DNA of 64,000 nucleotides from Chloroflexota bacterium. GTDB lineage: Bacteria > Chloroflexota > Anaerolineae > JAAEKA01. Under the pieces are notes generated by a model, which did not search any database, was not told the DNA's origin, and saw only the letters and a program-made list of their open reading frames with translations. Shown here one piece after another: positions 5,140 through 25,464 of the stretch (the first letter of the stretch is position 1; every line of letters begins with the position of its first letter). Where the stretch lies: assembly GCA_034717495.1 (NCBI GenBank), contig JAYELL010000040.1:8533-72532 (forward strand), given 5' to 3'. A program made the position numbers and the translations under genes.

Positions 5140-5176
5140 GCGTTAAGGGTAATATGGACAGCAGGAGTCGTGACGT

Positions 5177-5710
5177 TTGGAAAGCGTAAGAGAACAATCA
5201 TCGGAAATCGCCGATGGCTATGTTGCTATTGGGCGCATCGGTGGCTGCCACGGCGTTCGGGGCGATGTTAAGGTCACACTTCATACGGACCACCCCGATC
5301 GGTTCCTGAACATGGATCACCTGTTTCTGGGGCCAGAGGCCAGGCCCATCCGGGTGCTGGCAAGTAGACCCCATCAGAACAAGATGCTGCTGAAGTTGGA
5401 GGGTTATGAGGATCGGACAACGGCGGAAGAGTTGCGTGGCCTCTGGATCCAGATTCCTCTGGAGGAGGTAGCTCCTCTGGCCGAGGGTGAGCATTACATC
5501 TTTCAACTAGAGGGTCTTCGTGTAGCCACAACGGGCGGGGCGGAGTTAGGCGAAGTGCGCGACGTTCTTTTCACGGGCGCCAACCAGGTGCTTATCGTCC
5601 GCGGGGAAGGACGCGAGATATTGATTCCCTTTATTCAAGACGTTGTCCTCGAGGTCGATGTGGACGGGGGAAGGATTGTAGTCGAGCCGGTCGCCGGCCT
5701 TCTTGACTGA
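5177..5710 (+). CDS. rimM: Ribosome maturation factor RimM
   Basis: About 177 residues. RimM binds S19 in the pre-30S particle and helps process 16S rRNA. Seen: the N-terminal beta-barrel start YVAIGRIGGCHGVRGDVKV and the C-terminal PRC-barrel with EVRDVLFTGANQVLIV and ILIPFIQDVV, then VDGGRIVVEPVAGLLD. The start is a TTG at 5177 with GGAG about 9 bases upstream; no in-frame ATG fits. trmD would normally follow but is absent. Confidence 0.94.
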   Translation: MESVREQSSEIADGYVAIGRIGGCHGVRGDVKVTLHTDHPDRFLNMDHLFLGPEARPIRVLASRPHQNKMLLKLEGYEDRTTAEELRGLWIQIPLEEVAPLAEGEHYIFQLEGLRVATTGGAELGEVRDVLFTGANQVLIVRGEGREILIPFIQDVVLEVDVDGGRIVVEPVAGLLD

Positions 5711-5786
5711 TTCCTGGCAGGAAAAGGGCCCTCAAACGGGTCCTGAGTCCCTTGGGAAGAGCGGGGGTGGACCGTTTTCACACCGC

Positions 5787-5815
5787 TTGACAAAACGCGA
5801 CGGATAATGTATGCT
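5787..5815 (+). promoter_or_regulatory. Promoter upstream of dprA
   Basis: Perfect TTGACA (5787-5792), 17-base spacer, TATGCT (5810-5815). It lies about 95 bases before the dprA start and probably drives dprA-topA-xerC. Confidence 0.7.
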
Positions 5816-5909
5816 GCCTGACACCGACAGGCGGGTGGTCTCACCGGTACTACTGTATCGGCGATAAGACACGCCGTCGCACAACAGACTACGGTAGGGG
5901 AGGGGAACC

Positions 5910-7001
5910 GTGGAAGAACTGGCCTATTGGATCGGATTCAACAGAGTAATGGGCATTGGCGCTGTTCGACTCAAAGCTCTGTTAGATCACTTTGATGATG
6001 ATGTTGAGGCCGCCTGGTTCGCCGGCGCTACCGATCTGTTGGAAGCGGGACTCGATCGCCGCTCCGTCAGTAATCTTTTACTGGCGAGACAGCAGATGGA
6101 CCTGCAGGCCCAGATTGATCAGCTCAAACAATCTGGTGTGACTGCCCTCACGTGGCAATGTGAGGAGTACCCAATCAATCTGCGGAATATCGAGCAGCCG
6201 CCACCGGTGTTGTATATCAAGGGTGAGCTGATCCCGGAGGATGATTGGGCAGTTGCCGTTGTCGGTACCCGGCGAGCGAGCGTCTACGGGAAAGAGGTAG
6301 CGCGTCGCCTGGCAAGCGATCTTGTCCGCAATGGCATCACGGTAGTCAGCGGTCTCGCCACCGGCATCGACTCGATGGCTCACAGGGCAGCTGTGGATGT
6401 AGGTGGGCGCACTCTGGCCGTTCTGGGTTCGGGCGTCGATGTGATCTACCCGGCCAACAATCGGCAGCTGGCCACTGCGATCCAGGAGCAGGGAGCATTG
6501 ATCTCCGAGTTTCCGTTGGGTACGCATCCGGAGCGACGTAATTTCCCGCCGCGAAACCGCATCATTAGTGGGTTGTCCCTGGGTACGGTGGTCGTGGAGG
6601 CGGGTGTCCGGAGCGGCGCACTTATTACGGTGAAATCTGCCCTCGACCAGGGCCGGGACGTGTTCGCTGTTCCGGGCAGTATTTTGCAGAAGAGTTGCGA
6701 AGGTTCAAACCGTTTATTGCGAGATGGCGCCCGACCGGTGCTTTCGGTGGAAGATATCCTTGAGGAATTGCATCTGGCCAAGGTAACGCAGCAGGCAGAG
6801 GTGCGGGCCGCGGTCCCGACTACATTTATCGAGAGCACCCTGTTGGGACATCTCTCCGGTGAACCGACCTATGTTGATGAGCTGAGCCGGCTGACAGATT
6901 TGCCGGCAGCCACCATTGCGAGTACGCTGACTGTGTTGGAATTGAAGGGATTGGTCAGACAAGTCGGCGGCATGAGCTATATCCAGGTACGCGATTTTTG
7001 A
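5910..7001 (+). CDS. dprA: DNA-processing protein DprA (Smf)
   Basis: 363 residues. DprA loads RecA on incoming single-stranded DNA during transformation. An N-terminal helix-hairpin-helix-like region (YWIGFNRVMGIGAVRLKALL) precedes the Rossmann domain with VAVVGTRRAS, SGLATGID, SMAHRAA, VLGSGVDVIYP, FPPRNRIISGLS and EAGVRSGALITV, all conserved. A C-terminal winged-helix region (about residues 300-360) completes the long form. The start is GTG at 5910 after AGGGGAGGGG-like purine-rich sequence. topA follows after 38 bases, the usual dprA-topA pairing. Confidence 0.96.
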   Translation: MEELAYWIGFNRVMGIGAVRLKALLDHFDDDVEAAWFAGATDLLEAGLDRRSVSNLLLARQQMDLQAQIDQLKQSGVTALTWQCEEYPINLRNIEQPPPVLYIKGELIPEDDWAVAVVGTRRASVYGKEVARRLASDLVRNGITVVSGLATGIDSMAHRAAVDVGGRTLAVLGSGVDVIYPANNRQLATAIQEQGALISEFPLGTHPERRNFPPRNRIISGLSLGTVVVEAGVRSGALITVKSALDQGRDVFAVPGSILQKSCEGSNRLLRDGARPVLSVEDILEELHLAKVTQQAEVRAAVPTTFIESTLLGHLSGEPTYVDELSRLTDLPAATIASTLTVLELKGLVRQVGGMSYIQVRDF

Positions 7002-7039
7002 TTGTTTGATAGCGTCGAATACTCACAGTAAAGAGACTT

Positions 7040-9721
7040 ATGACTGAAGCATATTGCACAAAATGTAGAACGAAACGAGAAATGTTGAATCCTCAGCCGG
7101 TCTGGTTGAGCAACGGACGCGGCGCGAGCCAGGGCACTTGCACTGTGTGTGGCACGCGCATGACGCGCTTCGGTGAGACGCCTGCCCATGCCGGGCTGCC
7201 AAAACCGGAGATCCAGCCGAAACCGCGCAAAAAGAAAGTGCAACAGGATGGTCCTGCCCCTGAGGATATCTCAGCGCCTCTTGCCAGTGAGATGCAGGCC
7301 TACTGCGTGAAATGCAAGGAGTCGCGGACCATGCAGGATGGCCAGGCCGTCTTCATGGCTAACGGTCGACCAGCGGCAAGGGGGACATGCCCTGTATGTG
7401 GAACTGGCCTGTTCAAGATTGGTGCAACGCCGGAACATGACGCCTTGCCCAAACCTGTGGTACGGTCAAAGAAACGGCGTGGAAAAAAGGGCTCCAGCAG
7501 TACCCCGGTCAAAAAGCGATCGGGAAAGCTGGTGATCGTCGAATCGCCGGCCAAGGCCCGGACTGTCGGACGGTTCCTTGGCAAGGGTTACACGGTGCGG
7601 GCCTCCGTCGGACATGTGCGCGATCTGCTGCGCTCAAAGCTCTCGGTGGACATCGAAAACGACTTCGAGCCAACCTACCGGGTCCCCAACGACAAGCGTA
7701 AGACGGTAAAGGCTCTATCCCAAGAGGTGGAAAAGGCACGAGAGGTATATCTGGCAACCGATCCGGACCGCGAGGGAGAAGCGATTGCCTGGCACCTGGT
7801 CGAAGCAACCGGCGTCAAACCTGAGCAGAGCCGGCGGGTTGTTTTTCATGAGATTACCAGCGACGCAATAGCTGAGGCGTTTGCCCACCCGAGCGAACTG
7901 AACATGGATTTGATCAACGCTCAGCAGGCCCGACGGGTGTTGGATCGCCTGGTGGGTTACCAGATCAGCCCACTGCTATGGGATCGGGTTCGCGGACGAA
8001 CTTCGGCGGGTCGCGTGCAGTCCGTGGCGCTGCGACTGGTTGTCGAGCGGGAACGCGAGATCCAGGCATTTGTGCCGGTCGAGTATTGGGATGTACGCGC
8101 GCTGTTGGCACAGCAGGAGACTCGCCAGGAGGATCCGCGGCCCAGCTTTGAATCCAAGTTGCACCGGGTGCGCGGAAAAGAGGTCGATCTCAAGAACGAG
8201 GATGATACACAGGCCATCGTTCGTGACCTGGAGGATGCTCATTACCTGGTCACTTCGGTTCGTGAGGGAGAGCGAAGGCGCAGACCGTCAGCCCCTTTCA
8301 CCACGAGTACGTTGCAGCAGGAGGCTTCTCGTAAGTTGGGATTCGGTGCGCGGCGGACCATGCGGGTTGCCCAGCAGCTTTACGAGGGGATCAACCTGGG
8401 CGCCGATGGCCAGGTTGGTTTGATCACCTACATGCGAACTGATAGTGTGAATGTGTCGAAACAGGCTCAAAACGAAGCCAGAAGCTTTGTCGCTGAGAGC
8501 TATGGCCCCGAGTTCTTGCCTCCCAAGCCGCCTGTGTACAAGACCCGTGCCAAGAGCGCCCAGGAGGCCCACGAAGCCATCAGACCAACCTCGGTCATGC
8601 GAACGCCGGAGAGCGTTAGCCATGTCCTGGATCGCAGTCAGAGCCGGCTTTACCGGTTGATCTGGAGGCGATTTGTCGCCAGCCAGATGGCTGCAGCTGT
8701 CTTCGACACCCTGACCGTGGATATCGCTGCTCTGCCTCGCCGCAGTTATGCGACGGTTGGGTCTGGTGAGGCTGTTCGACTGGCCGAGACTCTCAAAAAA
8801 CCGGAGTATCATTTCCGCAGCAAGGGTTCCCGCGTGCGTTTTGCGGGTTATATGAGCGTGTACCAGGAGGGCAGGGATGAAAACGGCGGGCGAAATAACA
8901 ACGGCAACAACGGCAAGGACAAGTGGTTGCCTGCGTTAACTGCAGGTGAACTGCTAGACCTGCTGCAGTTGCTGCCCAAGCAACACTTCACTCAACCGCC
9001 ACCACGTTACTCGGAAGCCTCGTTGGTCAGGGCACTGGAAGAAAATGGCATCGGCAGGCCAAGCACCTATGCACCAACCATCACGACGATTCAAACACGG
9101 GGCTATGTGGAGCTTGAGGAACGGCGCCTGGTGCCAACGGAGCTCGGCTTCATCGTTATCGACGCGCTGGTGAAACATTTCCCGGACATCTTTGAGGTGG
9201 GCTTCACGGCGCGGATGGAAGAAGCGCTCGACGACGTTGCCGAAAACAAGCGCGACTGGGTCGAGGTGCTTCGGGAGTTCTATGAACCTTTTTCGGAAAT
9301 GCTCTCTGAAGCGGAACAGTCGATGGAGCGGACCCAGGTGCAGGACGAACCCATCGGCGAAGCTTGCCCCGAGTGTGGCCATGATCTGGTCCTGCGCTAT
9401 GGCCGTTACGGCAAGTTCATCGCCTGTTCACATTATCCCGAGTGCCGCTACACTCGTCCCTTCGTCATAAAAACCGGGGTGGCCTGCCCCAAGTGTCGCG
9501 AGGGAGAATTGGTCCAGCGCAGGAGCCGCAAGGGGCGCACGTTCTATGGCTGCAACCGCTACCCCGAGTGTGATTTCCTGGTGTGGCAGAAACCGCTGGA
9601 GACGCCCTGCCCCGATTGTGGCGGTCTTCTTACGCAAGGAGGGCGGGAAAGGGCCAAATGTACCAACTGCAGCCATTGGTTTGACGTCAAAAAACTGACG
9701 CCGGAGGCAGAGCCGGCCTAG
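7040..9721 (+). CDS. topA: DNA topoisomerase I with two extra N-terminal zinc-ribbon domains
   Basis: 893 residues; relaxes negatively supercoiled DNA. The N-terminal 90 or so residues hold two copies of a small four-cysteine module (AYCTKCRTKRE...GTCTVCGTRM and AYCVKCKESRT...GTCPVCGTGL) that resembles DUF5679, joined by a basic linker. The type IA core starts near residue 163 with the TOPRIM (LVIVESPAKARTVGRFLG; DPDREGEA near 240). NAQQARRVLDRLVGYQISP follows, and the catalytic tyrosine is in LITYMRTDSVN near residue 464. Three C-terminal zinc fingers (CPECG..., CPKCR..., CPDCG..., residues about 775-885) end the protein. The double N-terminal ribbon is absent from the E. coli enzyme. Confidence 0.96.
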   Translation: MTEAYCTKCRTKREMLNPQPVWLSNGRGASQGTCTVCGTRMTRFGETPAHAGLPKPEIQPKPRKKKVQQDGPAPEDISAPLASEMQAYCVKCKESRTMQDGQAVFMANGRPAARGTCPVCGTGLFKIGATPEHDALPKPVVRSKKRRGKKGSSSTPVKKRSGKLVIVESPAKARTVGRFLGKGYTVRASVGHVRDLLRSKLSVDIENDFEPTYRVPNDKRKTVKALSQEVEKAREVYLATDPDREGEAIAWHLVEATGVKPEQSRRVVFHEITSDAIAEAFAHPSELNMDLINAQQARRVLDRLVGYQISPLLWDRVRGRTSAGRVQSVALRLVVEREREIQAFVPVEYWDVRALLAQQETRQEDPRPSFESKLHRVRGKEVDLKNEDDTQAIVRDLEDAHYLVTSVREGERRRRPSAPFTTSTLQQEASRKLGFGARRTMRVAQQLYEGINLGADGQVGLITYMRTDSVNVSKQAQNEARSFVAESYGPEFLPPKPPVYKTRAKSAQEAHEAIRPTSVMRTPESVSHVLDRSQSRLYRLIWRRFVASQMAAAVFDTLTVDIAALPRRSYATVGSGEAVRLAETLKKPEYHFRSKGSRVRFAGYMSVYQEGRDENGGRNNNGNNGKDKWLPALTAGELLDLLQLLPKQHFTQPPPRYSEASLVRALEENGIGRPSTYAPTITTIQTRGYVELEERRLVPTELGFIVIDALVKHFPDIFEVGFTARMEEALDDVAENKRDWVEVLREFYEPFSEMLSEAEQSMERTQVQDEPIGEACPECGHDLVLRYGRYGKFIACSHYPECRYTRPFVIKTGVACPKCREGELVQRRSRKGRTFYGCNRYPECDFLVWQKPLETPCPDCGGLLTQGGRERAKCTNCSHWFDVKKLTPEAEPA

Positions 9722-9767
9722 TGACCCAAAACGGACCTGAGCTTCTCAGGCCTGGAGATGATACCGA

Positions 9768-10688
9768 ATGGAAGACGGGCTGGAGCGTTTCATCACACAC
9801 CTCATCGCAGAACGCAACGTCTCGCCCTATACGTTACGGAACTACCGAACGGAGATTCGTCAGTTCATAGCGTTCGCCAAGGACCAGGATGTGACCTCGT
9901 GGCAGCAGGTCGATAAGGCGCTGGTCCGCCGATGGCTGGCAGAACTTCGGGCGGCCGGGTATGTTCCTGCCAGTATGGCTCGCCGACTTTCCGAGGTGCG
10001 TTCCTGTTGTACGTTCCTGGTCCGTGAAGGTGACCTGGAACATAATCCCCTTTCAGGAATGGCATCGCCGAAACAGTCCCGGCGCCAGCCACGCGTGCTG
10101 AGTTACGACGAAGTCCTGGCGCTAATGCGGGGGCCGGACCAAAATCGGCCTCAGGGACAGCGCGACAAAGCGATCCTGGAGGTGCTATACGGCAGCGGCA
10201 TTCGCCTTGGTGAGCTGGAGGGCCTGGATATCTGCGACGTCAATCTCAGTCGTCGCGAATTGAAGGTGCTCGGCAAGGGCAACAAGGAACGGATAGCCCT
10301 GTTCGGCCAGGATGCTGAAACGGCATTGCGGCTCTATCTCTCCCAGGGTCGCTCTCAACTCAGCAACGACAAAACGGACGGTGCCGTGTTCCTGAACCGG
10401 TTTGGGAATCGGCTTGGAAGAGTCAGTATCACCCGGATGCTCGATCGTTACGCCAAACAAGTTGGGATCGAGCGGAAGGTAACCCCTCACGCCTTGCGCC
10501 ATTCCTTCGCCACCCACCTGGTTGACGAAGGAGTCGATATCCGTCTTATTCAAGAGCTGTTGGGTCATGAAAGCCCATCAACTACACAACGCTATACTCA
10601 CGTCAGCCAGGCACGACTTCACGAGGTGGTCCGCCAGGCCCATCCCCGCGGCAACCTGGAAAACGGCGGCGGTCAATCATCATTGTAA
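9768..10688 (+). CDS. xerC: Tyrosine recombinase XerC/XerD
   Basis: 306 residues, the normal length of Xer recombinases that resolve chromosome dimers at dif. The N-terminal SAM-like domain (FITHLIAERNVSPYTLRNYR) is followed by the catalytic domain with the first arginine in YGSGIRLGELEGL, the HALRHSFATHL box, LLGHESPSTTQRYTHV with the histidine and the nucleophilic tyrosine, about residue 275. It sits 46 bases after topA. XerC and XerD cannot be separated by eye; position after topA favours XerC. Confidence 0.93.
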   Translation: MEDGLERFITHLIAERNVSPYTLRNYRTEIRQFIAFAKDQDVTSWQQVDKALVRRWLAELRAAGYVPASMARRLSEVRSCCTFLVREGDLEHNPLSGMASPKQSRRQPRVLSYDEVLALMRGPDQNRPQGQRDKAILEVLYGSGIRLGELEGLDICDVNLSRRELKVLGKGNKERIALFGQDAETALRLYLSQGRSQLSNDKTDGAVFLNRFGNRLGRVSITRMLDRYAKQVGIERKVTPHALRHSFATHLVDEGVDIRLIQELLGHESPSTTQRYTHVSQARLHEVVRQAHPRGNLENGGGQSSL

Positions 10689-19351: not shown

Positions 19352-19427
19352 TGGTGCCCCCAAGGGGATTCGAACCCCTGTCGCAGGCTTGAAAGGCCTG
19401 AGTCCTAGTCCTCTAGACGATGGGGGC
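19352..19427 (-). tRNA. tRNA-Glu (anticodon UUC), CCA encoded
   Basis: Read on the minus strand: acceptor GCCCCCA pairs with TGGGGGC, the anticodon arm CAGGC-CTTTCAA-GCCTG shows anticodon TTC, and the T arm holds GGTTCGAATCC. The 3' CCA is encoded. All standard arms are present with no mismatch of note. Confidence 0.97.
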
Positions 19428-19561: not shown

Positions 19562-20827
19562 CTAGCTGACAAGTGGAAGCAACAACAACGGAATCTCCAT
19601 CTCGGCGCGGGTCAGGCCACCGTGATGGCCGCGGTATGGCTGGTCGAATCTGCCCTCTTCGTACCACCAAACGTTTCCATTGTCGCGGGGCAGGATCACC
19701 AGGTTACCGACGCGGGAGAGGAAAGCATCGGATACTGGCAGTGGCCCGAAGTATCCCCGCTGGATCAACGTCGATGTCTGGACGATATCGGCAGTGTCTT
19801 GAAGGTCCTCCTGCAGGAGCGCCTGGGCACCGGCCAGAGCAGCGTCGTTGACATAGAGAAACATATCCCGACAGGAACCGCCAGGGATGAGCAGATGTCC
19901 TTGCGAATTGACCCGCAACATGGGCTCCAGCTTGTGGAACTGGGGTAGCTGATGCAGATAGACGGTCTCCTCCGGATCGACCGTGACCTGGCCGTGGTCG
20001 GCCGTCAGCAGCACCAGAGTGTCGCTGGGGAGTCGACCAGCGTCGCGCCGGAACCAGCGCTCCAACTCGGAAAAACAGCTCTCGATCTCGGCCTGGGCCT
20101 GTGGCGAGTCAGGGCCGTATTCGTGCATGATGCCATCGATCATACCGAAGTAAAGGGCTGCCAGCGAAGCGCCTTGCTGTCGATCCAACAGTTCGGTCAG
20201 GTTCACCAGCGCCTCGGCCAGGGTCTTGTAGGGCATGATATCGGCCCCGCGGCTGATCAAATCCGAATAGGTGGACCGGGCGAAGGGAGCTGGCTGAAGG
20301 ATGGTTGTGGTAACCCCGTATCCTGCCAACTGCTGGCCCAACGCTTCGCCGGTTGGCAGGATATCGGGGCCAGTGATCCCGGCCGTGCGCAACGTCTCTG
20401 GCTGGTGGTCGCCTGCGAACGAAAAGGGCAGGGGCCAGATCATGGTGTCCAGCTTGGGTTCATAGTAGCCCCACTCGAACACGCCATGTTGGCCCACAGG
20501 TAGGCCCGTGTAGAAGGTGGTAACGTGGGCTGCCGTCGTGGAGGGAAACTGGGAGGTCAGCCGGGTTGCGCTGCCCTGATCGGCGAAACGGCGCAGGAAG
20601 GGCAGATTGGACCGGTGTTGCTCGAAAAAACGCCATCCGAAAGCGTCGACGAACAGAACGATGACATTCTGGTACCGTTGCGGAAAGGGGGCAAAACCGT
20701 CGGGATGCAGATCGCTGGTTTCCTCTTCGACGAGCACAGCTTTGATGAACTGGGGGATCTGGCTGAAGCAGCCACCCTGGTAGTCGGGCGCAATGAATTC
20801 GTCGTGATCGAACAGGGTGTCTGGCAT
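19562..20827 (-). CDS. Alkaline-phosphatase-superfamily phosphodiesterase/nucleotide pyrophosphatase
   Basis: 421 residues. The sequence resembles type I phosphodiesterase/nucleotide pyrophosphatase family members. The first metal site is in VIVLFVDAFGWRFFE, followed by SQFPSTTAAHVTTFYTGLPVGQHGVFEWGYYEP with the nucleophilic threonine (PSTTAAH). Metal ligands are in YFGMIDGIMHEYGPDS and LLTADHGQ. The region near 360-420 ends RFDQPYRGHHGGLTRAEMEIPLLL, a typical closing histidine motif. No signal peptide is seen, so it may act in the cytoplasm. The start at 20827 was kept because MPDTLF is the first family-like residue set; no clear ribosome binding site. Substrate unknown. Confidence 0.85.
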   Translation of the reverse strand: MPDTLFDHDEFIAPDYQGGCFSQIPQFIKAVLVEEETSDLHPDGFAPFPQRYQNVIVLFVDAFGWRFFEQHRSNLPFLRRFADQGSATRLTSQFPSTTAAHVTTFYTGLPVGQHGVFEWGYYEPKLDTMIWPLPFSFAGDHQPETLRTAGITGPDILPTGEALGQQLAGYGVTTTILQPAPFARSTYSDLISRGADIMPYKTLAEALVNLTELLDRQQGASLAALYFGMIDGIMHEYGPDSPQAQAEIESCFSELERWFRRDAGRLPSDTLVLLTADHGQVTVDPEETVYLHQLPQFHKLEPMLRVNSQGHLLIPGGSCRDMFLYVNDAALAGAQALLQEDLQDTADIVQTSTLIQRGYFGPLPVSDAFLSRVGNLVILPRDNGNVWWYEEGRFDQPYRGHHGGLTRAEMEIPLLLLPLVS

Positions 20828-21166: not shown

Positions 21167-21242
21167 TGGTGGCCCATACGGGACTCGAACCCGTGTCTCA
21201 GCCTTGAGAGGGCTGCATCCTAGGCCGCTAGACGAATGGGCC
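21167..21242 (-). tRNA. tRNA-Glu (anticodon CUC), CCA encoded
   Basis: Minus strand: acceptor GGCCCAT pairs with ATGGGCC, anticodon arm CAGCC-CTCTCAA-GGCTG gives anticodon CTC, T arm holds GGTTCGAGTCC. The 3' CCA is encoded. A second glutamate tRNA lies 1.7 kb away. Confidence 0.95.
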
Positions 21243-21295: not shown

Positions 21296-22744
21296 TCATC
21301 GATCGTTGGCGAGCCACTGATTCAGGGTGGTATAGGTTCTGGAGTTACCATTGATGCCGTCGCGCAACTCACCGAGCGTGCCGGCATGCTCGGCGTAGGC
21401 GTTGTGACGGTGGATACTCTCAAAGTTCTCCTGGCGAGCCATAACGAAATCGTCGTCTGGCAGATAAGCATAGGACTCCAGGGTCAGCCGAAGCATTTCG
21501 CGGACGACATCCTCGACGAAGCGAGGGTTGCGGTGGGCCTTGTTGACCACGAAGAATTCATCGGTCCGCTTCAGCAATTCGTATATCTCGGAACTCATGG
21601 ACTGCTCGACGATGTGCACCAGATCAAAGGCATGGATTTCCTGCCTGGTACCGATCATCAAGGTACCACGCCCTCGCTGGTTATGGGTCGCCAACGGGAT
21701 CAAGTCGAGGATTCGATCGGCCTCAGCCGGGCCCATGCCTTGCTCTTCCTGCAGAACCTGTTTTGAGTAACTGCGGACCATATCCTGGGCGCAGGGGCAG
21801 GCGGTCAGCCCATCGGCTTCTACGCCCACCAGCCGGCGCGTGCCCTGGCGGTCAGCCTCGGCCATGCCGATCAACGTGTAGATCGACTGGGTCCGTTTGC
21901 CCGACACAGGTGCCTGTTTTCGCATAGCAAACTTGGCGCGCACGTGCACCTCGGCTCGCAGCGCCTGCTGACTGCTTAGTACCTCTATAGCCAGTTTCTC
22001 CGCGAAGGTCTCGATGTCGGGCGCCTTGCGGACAATCATGCCCTCGATCACATTCTCCAGCTGGTCGCTGAAGCGGGACATATGGACTCCCGCCTGGGCT
22101 GGCGCCAGGTCCACAAAAAGATCCACGGTGGCATAAAAGAGGTTGTCGCCACCTTTTTCCGTAAGACGGATAATGCGTTCCAGGTTGGTAACACCGACCC
22201 GGCTGAGGCCAATTTCCACATGGGGAACACCGTTTTGAACATCGTGGTCGAGGGGCAGTTCCAAACAGCGGGTCGCCGGGAGAACGCCCTCAGTTTCGAC
22301 AAGATTGAGGTGTTGGCTGGCAGTGAGACCGGTAGCCGGGTGCAGAACATCCGGAGCGATCTCTGACAGCGGCACCAGCACGAAAGCCCGTTCGTTCATC
22401 TTTGGATGGGGAATCGTCAGGGCCGGGGTGTCGAGGATCAGGTCGTCGTAGAGCAGGATGTCGATGTCAATCAATCTTGGGCCATAGCGGAAGGAAGAAA
22501 GGCGCCCCATGCGCTGTTCAACCTGTTTGATGAACTGAAGCAGTTTTTCGGGTGACAGCTCGGTGACTCCCTGGACCACAATGTTGATGAAATCGGGTTG
22601 TTTCGTATAGCCAACCGGCTTTGTCTCGTAGCATGAGGAGATTGCCTCGATGTCGATCTGGCTGCGAAGCATCTGTACCGCTTGTGCCAGGTTGTTTTGG
22701 CGATCGCCCAGATTGGAGCCCAGGCCCAGGAGGAGGGAATGCAT
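21296..22744 (-). CDS. folK: Fused HPPK (FolK) and MptA-like GTP cyclohydrolase
   Basis: About 482 residues, two enzymes in one frame. Residues 1-165 are 6-hydroxymethyl-dihydropterin pyrophosphokinase: start LLLGLGSNLGDRQNNL, YETKPVGYTKQPDFIN, and the metal-binding RLIDIDILLYDD. From about residue 190 on the protein matches GTP cyclohydrolase of the FolE2/MptA group: GVSNxxR-type start, TACPCAQDMVRSYSKQ with the Cys that binds the iron/zinc, ATHNQRGRGTLMIG, and HRNPRFVEDVVREM, a pattern closer to archaeal MptA than to bacterial FolE2. FolK and a cyclohydrolase act at two steps of folate synthesis, so the fusion is chemically sensible. The ATG at 22744 is preceded by AAAGG; the longer open frame up to 22981 is not family-like. 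Confidence 0.9.
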   Translation of the reverse strand: MHSLLLGLGSNLGDRQNNLAQAVQMLRSQIDIEAISSCYETKPVGYTKQPDFINIVVQGVTELSPEKLLQFIKQVEQRMGRLSSFRYGPRLIDIDILLYDDLILDTPALTIPHPKMNERAFVLVPLSEIAPDVLHPATGLTASQHLNLVETEGVLPATRCLELPLDHDVQNGVPHVEIGLSRVGVTNLERIIRLTEKGGDNLFYATVDLFVDLAPAQAGVHMSRFSDQLENVIEGMIVRKAPDIETFAEKLAIEVLSSQQALRAEVHVRAKFAMRKQAPVSGKRTQSIYTLIGMAEADRQGTRRLVGVEADGLTACPCAQDMVRSYSKQVLQEEQGMGPAEADRILDLIPLATHNQRGRGTLMIGTRQEIHAFDLVHIVEQSMSSEIYELLKRTDEFFVVNKAHRNPRFVEDVVREMLRLTLESYAYLPDDDFVMARQENFESIHRHNAYAEHAGTLGELRDGINGNSRTYTTLNQWLANDR

Positions 22745-22953
22745 GGTGAAAGCCTTTCTCGCTTGGTATTGACTTGCTCTTGAGCGATTATACCTGAGCG
22801 AGGGGCGTTTGAGAAGAGGGATGAAACGAATGCCGATGGCCGGCGCATGGGGGATGGTGAGAGGGATGGAATAAGGCGGGACGGGATGGGCCGATGGAGG
22901 GTGATTGCCAGGGGGATTGCCGGTTCGTTGCAGGTCGGCTATAATCTGGCAGC

Positions 22954-24523: not shown

Positions 24524-24739
24524 CGCCTACCTCTCGGATCGGTTGCTACCGTGCTGGCGTGGCGTGCTACCTCACGGTACGCCGCCCGAAAGGGCCGCCT
24601 CGCCAATAGGCGTGCTTTGCATCGGCGTGCTGGCGTGACGTCACACACCGCTTGCTGCCTCCCGGCACGCCTAGCTCACGCACCGCTTGCTGCCTCTCGG
24701 CACGCCTACCTCTCGGATCGGTTGCTACCGTGCTGGCGT
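24524..24739. repeat. Direct and tandem duplications beside the IS3 remnant
   Basis: A perfect 37-base direct repeat starts CGCCTACCTCTCGGATCGGT and occurs at 24524-24560 and 24703-24739. Between them lies a 35-base tandem duplication (24646-24680 and 24681-24715, three mismatches). The sequence is GC-rich and degenerate and follows the truncated end of an OrfB reading frame, as if slippage or recombination expanded the end of an insertion element. Confidence 0.75.
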
Positions 24740-24757
24740 AGCGTGCTGGCGTAGCGT

Positions 24758-25045
24758 GGTGTAGTCGCTCATCGTTGTAGAACTGGAAGTAGTTGCGCAA
24801 ACCGACTTCGAGCTCAGGAACCGAGGAGTAGTCCATGAGATAGATGTTTTCATACTTGACGGTGCGCCAGAGGCGTTCGACGAAGATATTGTCCAATGCT
24901 CGGCCTCGGCCATCCATGCTTACCTGAACGCCGGCGGCCTGGACCGTATCGGTGAATGCCTGGGCTGTGAATTGAGCGCCTTAACCGGAATCCAGGATAT
25001 CCGCCCTGCCTTGCTCCAGTGCTTGGTGCAGAGCGACCAAACAGA
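24758..25045 (-). pseudogene. C-terminal remnant of an IS3-family transposase (OrfB)
   Basis: Minus strand. The integrase core end is recognisable: MDGRGRALDNIFVERLWRT, YENIYLMDYSSVPELEVGL and FYNDERLH. An in-frame TAA at 24981-24983 interrupts the expected DSDQG..F motif (here DSG-stop-GAQF), and the C-terminus fades into the duplicated repeats. Upstream the frame is lost at about 25045, next to an attC-like half site. Not functional. Confidence 0.75.
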
Positions 25046-25122: not shown

Positions 25123-25464
25123 TTAGGTTTGCAGAACCGTATCTAGAAAACCGAGTTGTATCTTCACCACATGTTCTACCTTTCGCATGTCGGCATGTGT
25201 CAACCTGCCCGCTCGGTTGATTAAACGCTGTTTGCTCACTGTAGTCAGCTGGTCTGCCATTGCCTTGCTATGCCTATCCTTGAGCGTCACAACTGCCTCG
25301 CTGGGATAGACGTGACCTACCCGAGTTGTCAGGGGCACAACCTGTACACGGTTAAGGTGTTTGTTTGCTGCATCATTGCTGATGATGACCGCTGGACGCT
25401 TTTTCCTAATCTCACCGCCAACCGACGGGTCAAAGTTCACCCACCATACCTCACCGCGTTTCAT
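25123..25464 (-). CDS. mazF: MazF/PemK-family endoribonuclease toxin
   Basis: 113 residues, the normal size. MazF toxins cut mRNA at short motifs unless bound by the antitoxin. Seen: KRGEVWWVNFDPSVGGEIRK with the basic loop, RPAVIISND, VQVVPLTT, and ADQLTTVSKQRL before the C-terminal helix. All expected conserved residues are present, so the toxin may be active. It overlaps the antitoxin gene by 14 bases, and lies in a region of decayed mobile DNA. Confidence 0.92.
   Translation of the reverse strand: MKRGEVWWVNFDPSVGGEIRKKRPAVIISNDAANKHLNRVQVVPLTTRVGHVYPSEAVVTLKDRHSKAMADQLTTVSKQRLINRAGRLTHADMRKVEHVVKIQLGFLDTVLQT

What the first reader, a model, noticed from the sequence alone, without database searches (positions are those of the whole stretch)
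21296..22744. Fusion of HPPK (FolK) with an MptA-like GTP cyclohydrolase
One frame joins FolK to a cyclohydrolase whose motifs (TACPCAQDM, ATHNQRGRG, VEDVVREM) look more like archaeal MptA than bacterial FolE2. The bacterial folate pathway is thereby linked to an enzyme usually seen in archaea, in one polypeptide. MptA-type products are cyclic phosphates and need a further phosphodiesterase, so the pathway here may differ.
Basis: partly seen in the sequence, partly recalled or inferred. Interest (0 to 1): 0.65.

Follow-up and report, generated by a model that had tools for sequence, protein, structure and literature searches.

The report
FolK–MptA two-enzyme pterin fusion protein
A bacterial gene joins two enzymes of vitamin-like pterin synthesis, one of them of the archaeal MptA type; the fusion is real and shared by many bacterial phyla, where it often sits in operons for the one-carbon carrier tetrahydromethanopterin, although this genome shows no sign of that pathway and has a normal folate set as well.

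Summary
One uninterrupted 482-codon frame (22744→21296, minus strand) encodes HPPK/FolK (residues ~4-145) joined to a GTP cyclohydrolase (168-464) that passes the NCBIfam MptA equivalog cut-off (300 vs 220 bits), fails the FolE2 one (155 vs 215), and falls in a bacterial MptA clade, 100/100 apart from FolE2. The fusion is neither unique nor confined to Chloroflexota: the same polypeptide was found in 57 loci (some fetched twice) from Chloroflexota, Synergistota, Caldisericota, Thermodesulfobacteriota, Spirochaetota, Acidobacteriota, Eremiobacterota and others. In many it lies inside tetrahydromethanopterin/methanofuran C1 operons, so it is best read as the first and third enzymes of the bacterial H4MPT pterin branch. 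The middle enzyme is a PTPS with the hybrid CExxHGH motif, or FolB: of 16 fusion genomes tested, 12 have PTPS and no FolB, 4 have FolB and no PTPS. The window genome (Caldilineales family) shows no Mch or beta-RFAP synthase but has FolE, FolB, a second FolK and FolP; its copy is an extra entry to folate or an orphan. The cyclic-phosphate product is unproven. I found no paper describing the fusion in the held library.

The parts
21296..22744 (-). folK-mptA fusion gene, 482 aa, ATG start, single frame
   Evidence: 57 loci with the same architecture
22310..22735 (-). HPPK (FolK) domain, residues 4-145; GPRxxDxD motif intact
   Evidence: PF01288 E=5e-41, TIGR01498 144 bits vs cut-off 54; S. aureus HPPK structure 5etq at TM 0.94 of target
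22244..22309 (-). short inter-domain linker, residues 146-167
   Evidence: domain bounds; lower model confidence around residues 161-170
21353..22243 (-). MptA-type GTP cyclohydrolase domain, residues 168-464
   Evidence: TIGR00294 300 bits vs cut-off 220; FolE2 equivalog 155 vs 215; tree
21791..21799 (-). CPC motif (C316-P-C318), aligned with the Cys147 region of N. gonorrhoeae FolE2
   Evidence: alignment; invariant in 38 fusions
21674..21685 (-). HNQR motif (H354), aligned with FolE2 His159; preceded by an MptA-type insert of about 30 residues that is short in FolE2
22753..22759 (-). possible ribosome-binding site AGAAAGG, 8 bases before the ATG
   Evidence: read from sequence
22787..22815 (-). 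promoter-like site TTCTCA-17-TATAAT upstream of the gene
   Evidence: consensus match only

Best explanation
The gene encodes a bifunctional pterin enzyme: an N-terminal HPPK (FolK) and a C-terminal MptA-type GTP cyclohydrolase. It carries the first step (GTP ring opening and reclosure to a dihydroneopterin phosphate) and the third step (pyrophosphorylation of 6-hydroxymethyl-7,8-dihydropterin) of the pterin branch. The step between is made by a separate protein: PTPS-I/III (CExxHGH) in most fusion genomes, FolB in the others including this one. The family's main setting is tetrahydromethanopterin synthesis in bacteria; in lineages with no sign of H4MPT (Ktedonobacteria, Thermobaculum, this Caldilineales-family genome) the same protein most likely feeds folate. 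In Thermogemmatispora it is the only GTP cyclohydrolase I-type enzyme found; in the window genome it is a second entry beside FolE-FolB-FolK2. Shown: architecture, family, conservation, neighbourhoods, presence and absence of partner genes. Inferred: both activities, the product, and the pathway served in this genome.
For: Domain and equivalog calls; all aligned active-site residues kept and invariant in 38 fusions; MptA clade distinct from FolE2 and next to archaeal MptA (46, 67); the fusion sits inside H4MPT/methanofuran clusters with FhcA, FhcB, Mch, FTR, MptN-like, DHPS-like TIGR00284 and AfpA/dihydromethanopterin-reductase-like neighbours; unfused mptA occupies the same slot in Actinomycetota, and Halanaerobium has mptA plus a FolP-FolB-FolK trio in the cluster; PTPS/FolB mutual exclusion, 12 and 4 of 16 fusion genomes, with CExxHGH in the PTPS beside fusions, a motif reported as a PTPS-I/III hybrid able to serve folate (PMC5041015); 12 of 19 fusion genomes in the phylum sample lack FolE against 50 of 381 others; the window genome lacks Mch, beta-RFAP synthase and PTPS (28) but has FolE, FolB, FolK2, FolP (9, 23, 24, 27); purifying selection on both halves against the nearest relative: codon position 3 differs at 53-57%, position 2 at 14-17%.
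Against: No activity has been measured for any fusion protein here. The window genome already has a full canonical folate pterin branch, so the fusion may do something else there. Two genomes of the same family (G002, G004) keep a closely related FolK without MptA, so the MptA half is dispensable in close relatives. The genome is a draft (95.6% complete), so Mch or beta-RFAP synthase could be missing by chance.
Confidence: 0.62

Rival explanations
1. The MptA half works like FolE2: it releases 7,8-dihydroneopterin triphosphate, which PTPS-I/III, or phosphatases plus FolB, use directly; no cyclic phosphodiesterase is needed. (This rival concerns the product only and can hold together with the main explanation.)
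For: Metal-site residues are identical to FolE2; the recurrent partner is a PTPS whose bacterial relatives use the triphosphate (PMC5041015); no recurrent HD-type phosphodiesterase was seen beside the fusions.
Against: It clusters with MptA, for whose M. jannaschii member the next pathway step is a cyclic phosphodiesterase, MJ0837 (PMC8305020); the review says archaeal PTPS-III in H4MPT synthesis may use the monophosphate; a phosphodiesterase elsewhere in the genomes was not searched for.
Confidence: 0.45
2. In the window genome the fusion is a condition-specific backup for zinc-dependent FolE, as FolE2 is in bacteria with both enzymes: a cyclohydrolase using another metal (Fe or Mn) takes over when zinc is short.
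For: FolE and the fusion coexist in G000 and G001; M. jannaschii MptA is Fe2+-dependent (title cited in PMC8305020).
Against: No Zur gene or Zur box was tested; the gene stands alone next to a tRNA; a backup would not need its own FolK.
Confidence: 0.2
3. The window copy is a remnant of a lost H4MPT pathway, kept mainly for its FolK half or on the way to loss.
For: No Mch or beta-RFAP synthase in G000; G002 and G004 keep only the FolK half.
Against: Open frame with every invariant residue; both domains 67-71% identical to G001 with third-position-biased changes; persistence in two genera, G000 and G001.
Confidence: 0.2
4. The fusion is an artefact (frameshift, mis-assembly or read-through).
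For: In one metagenome genome (L004/L148) an in-frame TAG interrupts the FolK half.
Against: 57 loci, isolates included (Thermogemmatispora, Ktedonosporobacter), carry one open frame.
Confidence: 0.01

Closest known systems
Archaeal GTP cyclohydrolase MptA (TIGR00294; M. jannaschii MJ0775, H. volcanii HVO_2348)
   Same: Passes the MptA equivalog cut-off; archaeal MptA lie next to the bacterial clade in the tree
   Different: Bacterial clade, with archaeal sequences 36-43% identical to it; fused to FolK
Bacterial GTP cyclohydrolase IB, FolE2 (NF010200; PDB 3d2o/5k95, 8g6c)
   Same: Same fold (TM 0.75-0.82 of target) and same metal-site residues
   Different: Below the FolE2 cut-off; separated by a long, fully supported branch; other Chloroflexota carry true, unfused FolE2
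Bifunctional folate fusions (HPPK-DHPS, DHNA-HPPK)
   Same: HPPK joined to another enzyme of the same pathway
   Different: The partner here is the entry enzyme of the pathway, not an adjacent step
Bacterial H4MPT/methanofuran C1 operons (Fhc, Mch, FTR, MptN, AfpA)
   Same: Many fusions lie inside such operons
   Different: The window copy does not, and its genome shows no Mch or beta-RFAP synthase

Membership tests
GTP cyclohydrolase MptA (TIGR00294) | Score over the curated equivalog cut-off | tested here: met
   300.3 bits vs 220; of the control genomes five ring and three pass the cut-off, presumably the three archaea
GTP cyclohydrolase MptA (TIGR00294) | Groups with archaeal MptA, not FolE2, in a tree | tested here: met
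   FolE2 split off at 100/100; bacterial MptA clade 99/100
GTP cyclohydrolase MptA (TIGR00294) | Makes 7,8-dihydroneopterin 2',3'-cyclic phosphate, Fe(II)-dependent | not testable with these tools
   Needs an enzyme assay
GTP cyclohydrolase IB, FolE2 (NF010200) | Score over the curated equivalog cut-off | tested here: not met
   154.8 bits vs 215
HPPK/FolK (TIGR01498) | Score over cut-off and GPRxxDxD motif | tested here: met
   144 bits vs 54; motif GPRLIDID
Bacterial H4MPT biosynthesis gene set | Fusion lies with H4MPT/methanofuran genes | tested here: not met
   Not met for the window copy (tRNA-Glu and PF01663 neighbours); met for 15 of 34 fused named bacterial loci
Bacterial H4MPT biosynthesis gene set | Genome encodes Mch and beta-RFAP synthase | tested here: not met
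   Neither over cut-off in G000; draft genome, 95.6% complete
De novo folate pathway | FolE, FolB, FolK and FolP present in the same genome | tested here: met
   FolE C19, FolB and FolK2 C51, FolP C57

The most novel reading that the evidence does not exclude
An undescribed bifunctional enzyme family, FolK-MptA, is a standard pterin entry of bacterial H4MPT operons, works with a hybrid PTPS that removes the need for both FolB and a cyclic phosphodiesterase, and has been taken over for folate in lineages without H4MPT, such as Thermogemmatispora, where it replaces FolE and (with the PTPS) FolB.
Probability: 0.4. Interest if true: 0.6.

Novelty: new variant of a known kind. Interest (0 to 1): 0.45.

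Why it matters
It supplies a candidate for the pterin branch of bacterial tetrahydromethanopterin synthesis, explains how several bacteria without FolE and FolB could still make folate, and points to cultured organisms (Thermogemmatispora, Ktedonosporobacter) in which the product of a bacterial MptA (cyclic phosphate or triphosphate) can be tested directly. It also warns that an MptA call in a bacterium is not by itself a sign of archaeal gene transfer or of methanopterin.

Tried and rejected
Artefact by frameshift: rejected, the frame is intact in many loci. FolE2 membership: rejected by cut-off and tree. H4MPT role in the window genome itself: tested through Mch and beta-RFAP synthase, not supported. 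A phosphodiesterase partner: a PF01663 phosphodiesterase lies downstream in the window and another beside the gene in G001 and G002, but the family has 22 matches in G000, the window copy does not match the G001/G002 neighbour, and similar copies (424-466 aa, near-equal scores) in the related genomes lie on other contigs; I treat it as coincidence. Riboswitch upstream: none. Literature: ten searches found no description of the fusion; the library holds open-licence papers only, so this is weak evidence of absence. MptB was not searched for because I had no family accession for it. Whether the fusion arose once and split, or repeatedly, is not settled: four state changes on the tree, deep bacterial forks unresolved.

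Full report
Observation. The minus-strand frame 22744→21296 is one open frame of 482 codons. Pfam finds HPPK at residues 6-131 (E=5e-41) and the GCHY-1 cyclohydrolase family at 168-451 (E=7e-69). Among curated NCBIfam models the second half passes MptA (TIGR00294, 300 bits, cut-off 220) and fails FolE2 (155, cut-off 215); the first half passes FolK (144, cut-off 54). An AlphaFold2 model from 38 fusion sequences has mean pLDDT 86 and pTM 0.66. It matches solved GTP cyclohydrolase IB structures at TM 0.75-0.82 of the target and HPPK structures at up to 0.94. The modest pTM leaves the relative placement of the domains uncertain.

Active sites. Aligned with N. gonorrhoeae FolE2 (3d2o/5k95), the window keeps the residues at FolE2 positions Cys147, His159, Glu201, Glu216 and His246 as C316, H354, E396, E411 and H445 (positions counted from the alignment, their metal and catalytic roles from my own knowledge). 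All are invariant in 38 fusions. They are common to both subfamilies, so they do not tell the product. A segment of about 30 residues between CPC and HNQR, short in FolE2, marks the MptA type here.

Spread. Among 60 relatives, five genomes besides the window's carry the fusion (one of them with an in-frame TAG) and many more carry only FolK. In 400 phylum genomes, 19 have an MptA-type enzyme; all are linked to FolK, two of them with a broken frame. The whole-collection scan added Synergistota, Caldisericota, Thermodesulfobacteriota, Spirochaetota, Acidobacteriota, Eremiobacterota and others; 57 loci of the combined set are fused in one frame, some of them the same record fetched twice. Names of metagenome bins are taken as given.

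Trees. In the careful MptA tree (88 rows) Chloroflexota FolE2 stand apart at 100/100, bacterial MptA form one clade (99/100), and archaeal MptA lie outside it (quick version). The window pairs with G001 (100/100). Deep bacterial forks are unresolved. Fused and unfused states need four changes. Unfused forms include Halanaerobium and Solirubrobacterales, a set of Actinomycetota, and some Synergistaceae. In the FolK tree the unfused FolK of G002 and G004 falls with the window and G001 (SH-aLRT 98), so the MptA half was lost or gained within this family.

Neighbourhoods. In G052 the fusion lies between formylmethanofuran dehydrogenase subunits B and A on one side and, on the other, a PTPS, a flavoprotein related to dihydromethanopterin reductase/AfpA, a dihydropteroate-synthase-like protein, FTR, methenyl-H4MPT cyclohydrolase and an MptN-like ligase. 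Similar layouts recur in Syntrophobacteraceae, Synergistota, Desulfobacteraceae, Desulfocapsa and others, and Actinomycetota hold unfused mptA in the same slot. Of 34 fused named bacterial loci, 15 have at least two H4MPT-type neighbours and 10 have a PTPS nearby; the flanks are at most 6 kb and often cut by contig ends, so these are lower bounds. Halanaerobium has mptA, a 4-HFC-P synthase and a FolP-FolB-FolK trio in its cluster. H4MPT/methanofuran genes in Chloroflexi were noted before (PMC5020050).

Middle step. The PTPS proteins beside fusions carry CExxHGH. A review reports ExxHGH as the folate-type PTPS-III motif, CxxxHGH as QueD, and CExxHGH as a hybrid that can serve both, and notes that archaeal PTPS-III in H4MPT synthesis may use the monophosphate (PMC5041015). 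Of 16 fusion genomes tested, 12 have a PTPS and no FolB, and 4 (G000, G001, G210, G349) have FolB and no PTPS. This complementary pattern is the best evidence that PTPS stands in for FolB; the genomes are related, so it is not 16 independent cases. Thermogemmatispora lacks FolE, FolB and Mch and keeps the fusion, the same PTPS subfamily (elsewhere in the genome) and FolP.

The window genome. G000 (95.6% complete) has FolE, FolB next to a second FolK, and FolP. It has no PTPS, no Mch and no beta-RFAP synthase above cut-off. The fusion gene stands alone, some 54 bases before a tRNA-Glu(CTC) on the same strand. Against G001, 53-57% of third codon positions differ but only 14-17% of second positions, in both halves, so both look to be under purifying selection. 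What the extra entry enzyme does here is not settled: folate from a second cyclohydrolase, metal-dependent backup, or an orphan kept for its FolK half.

The fusion and the MptA assignment stand. The idea of an archaeal enzyme newly tied to bacterial folate does not: bacterial MptA-FolK fusions are widespread and are seen with H4MPT genes or, without them, in bacteria that carry folate genes. The cyclic phosphate and the phosphodiesterase are open questions.

Noticed in passing
window 19562-20827 (-): PF01663 type I phosphodiesterase/nucleotide pyrophosphatase downstream of the fusion; one of 22 matches to this family in the genome.
   Followed up: yes
window 19352-19427 and 21167-21242 (-): Two tRNA-Glu genes with different anticodons (ttc, ctc) within 2 kb.
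   Followed up: no
window 5174-10685 (+) and L078:1-6155: A gene block near the fusion is shared with the neighbourhood of the unfused FolK in G002 (54-74% protein identity), at a different distance and orientation relative to FolK.
   Followed up: partly
window 24567-24917 (-) and 25123-25464 (-): By eye, an IS3-type integrase fragment and a MazF/PemK-like toxin frame.
   Followed up: no
L004:1852-1854 (+): In-frame TAG inside the FolK half of the fusion in genome G038; sequencing error or a real split was not decided.
   Followed up: partly
L241:2600-4613 (-): FolK and FolP in one frame beside a PTPS with the pure ExxHGH (PTPS-III) motif in G015: a FolB-free folate set in the same class.
   Followed up: partly
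L153:8760-10273 (+), L158:3743-4345 (+): A DUF447 protein and a GHMP-kinase-fold protein recur near the fusion in H4MPT-type clusters; functions not known to me.
   Followed up: no
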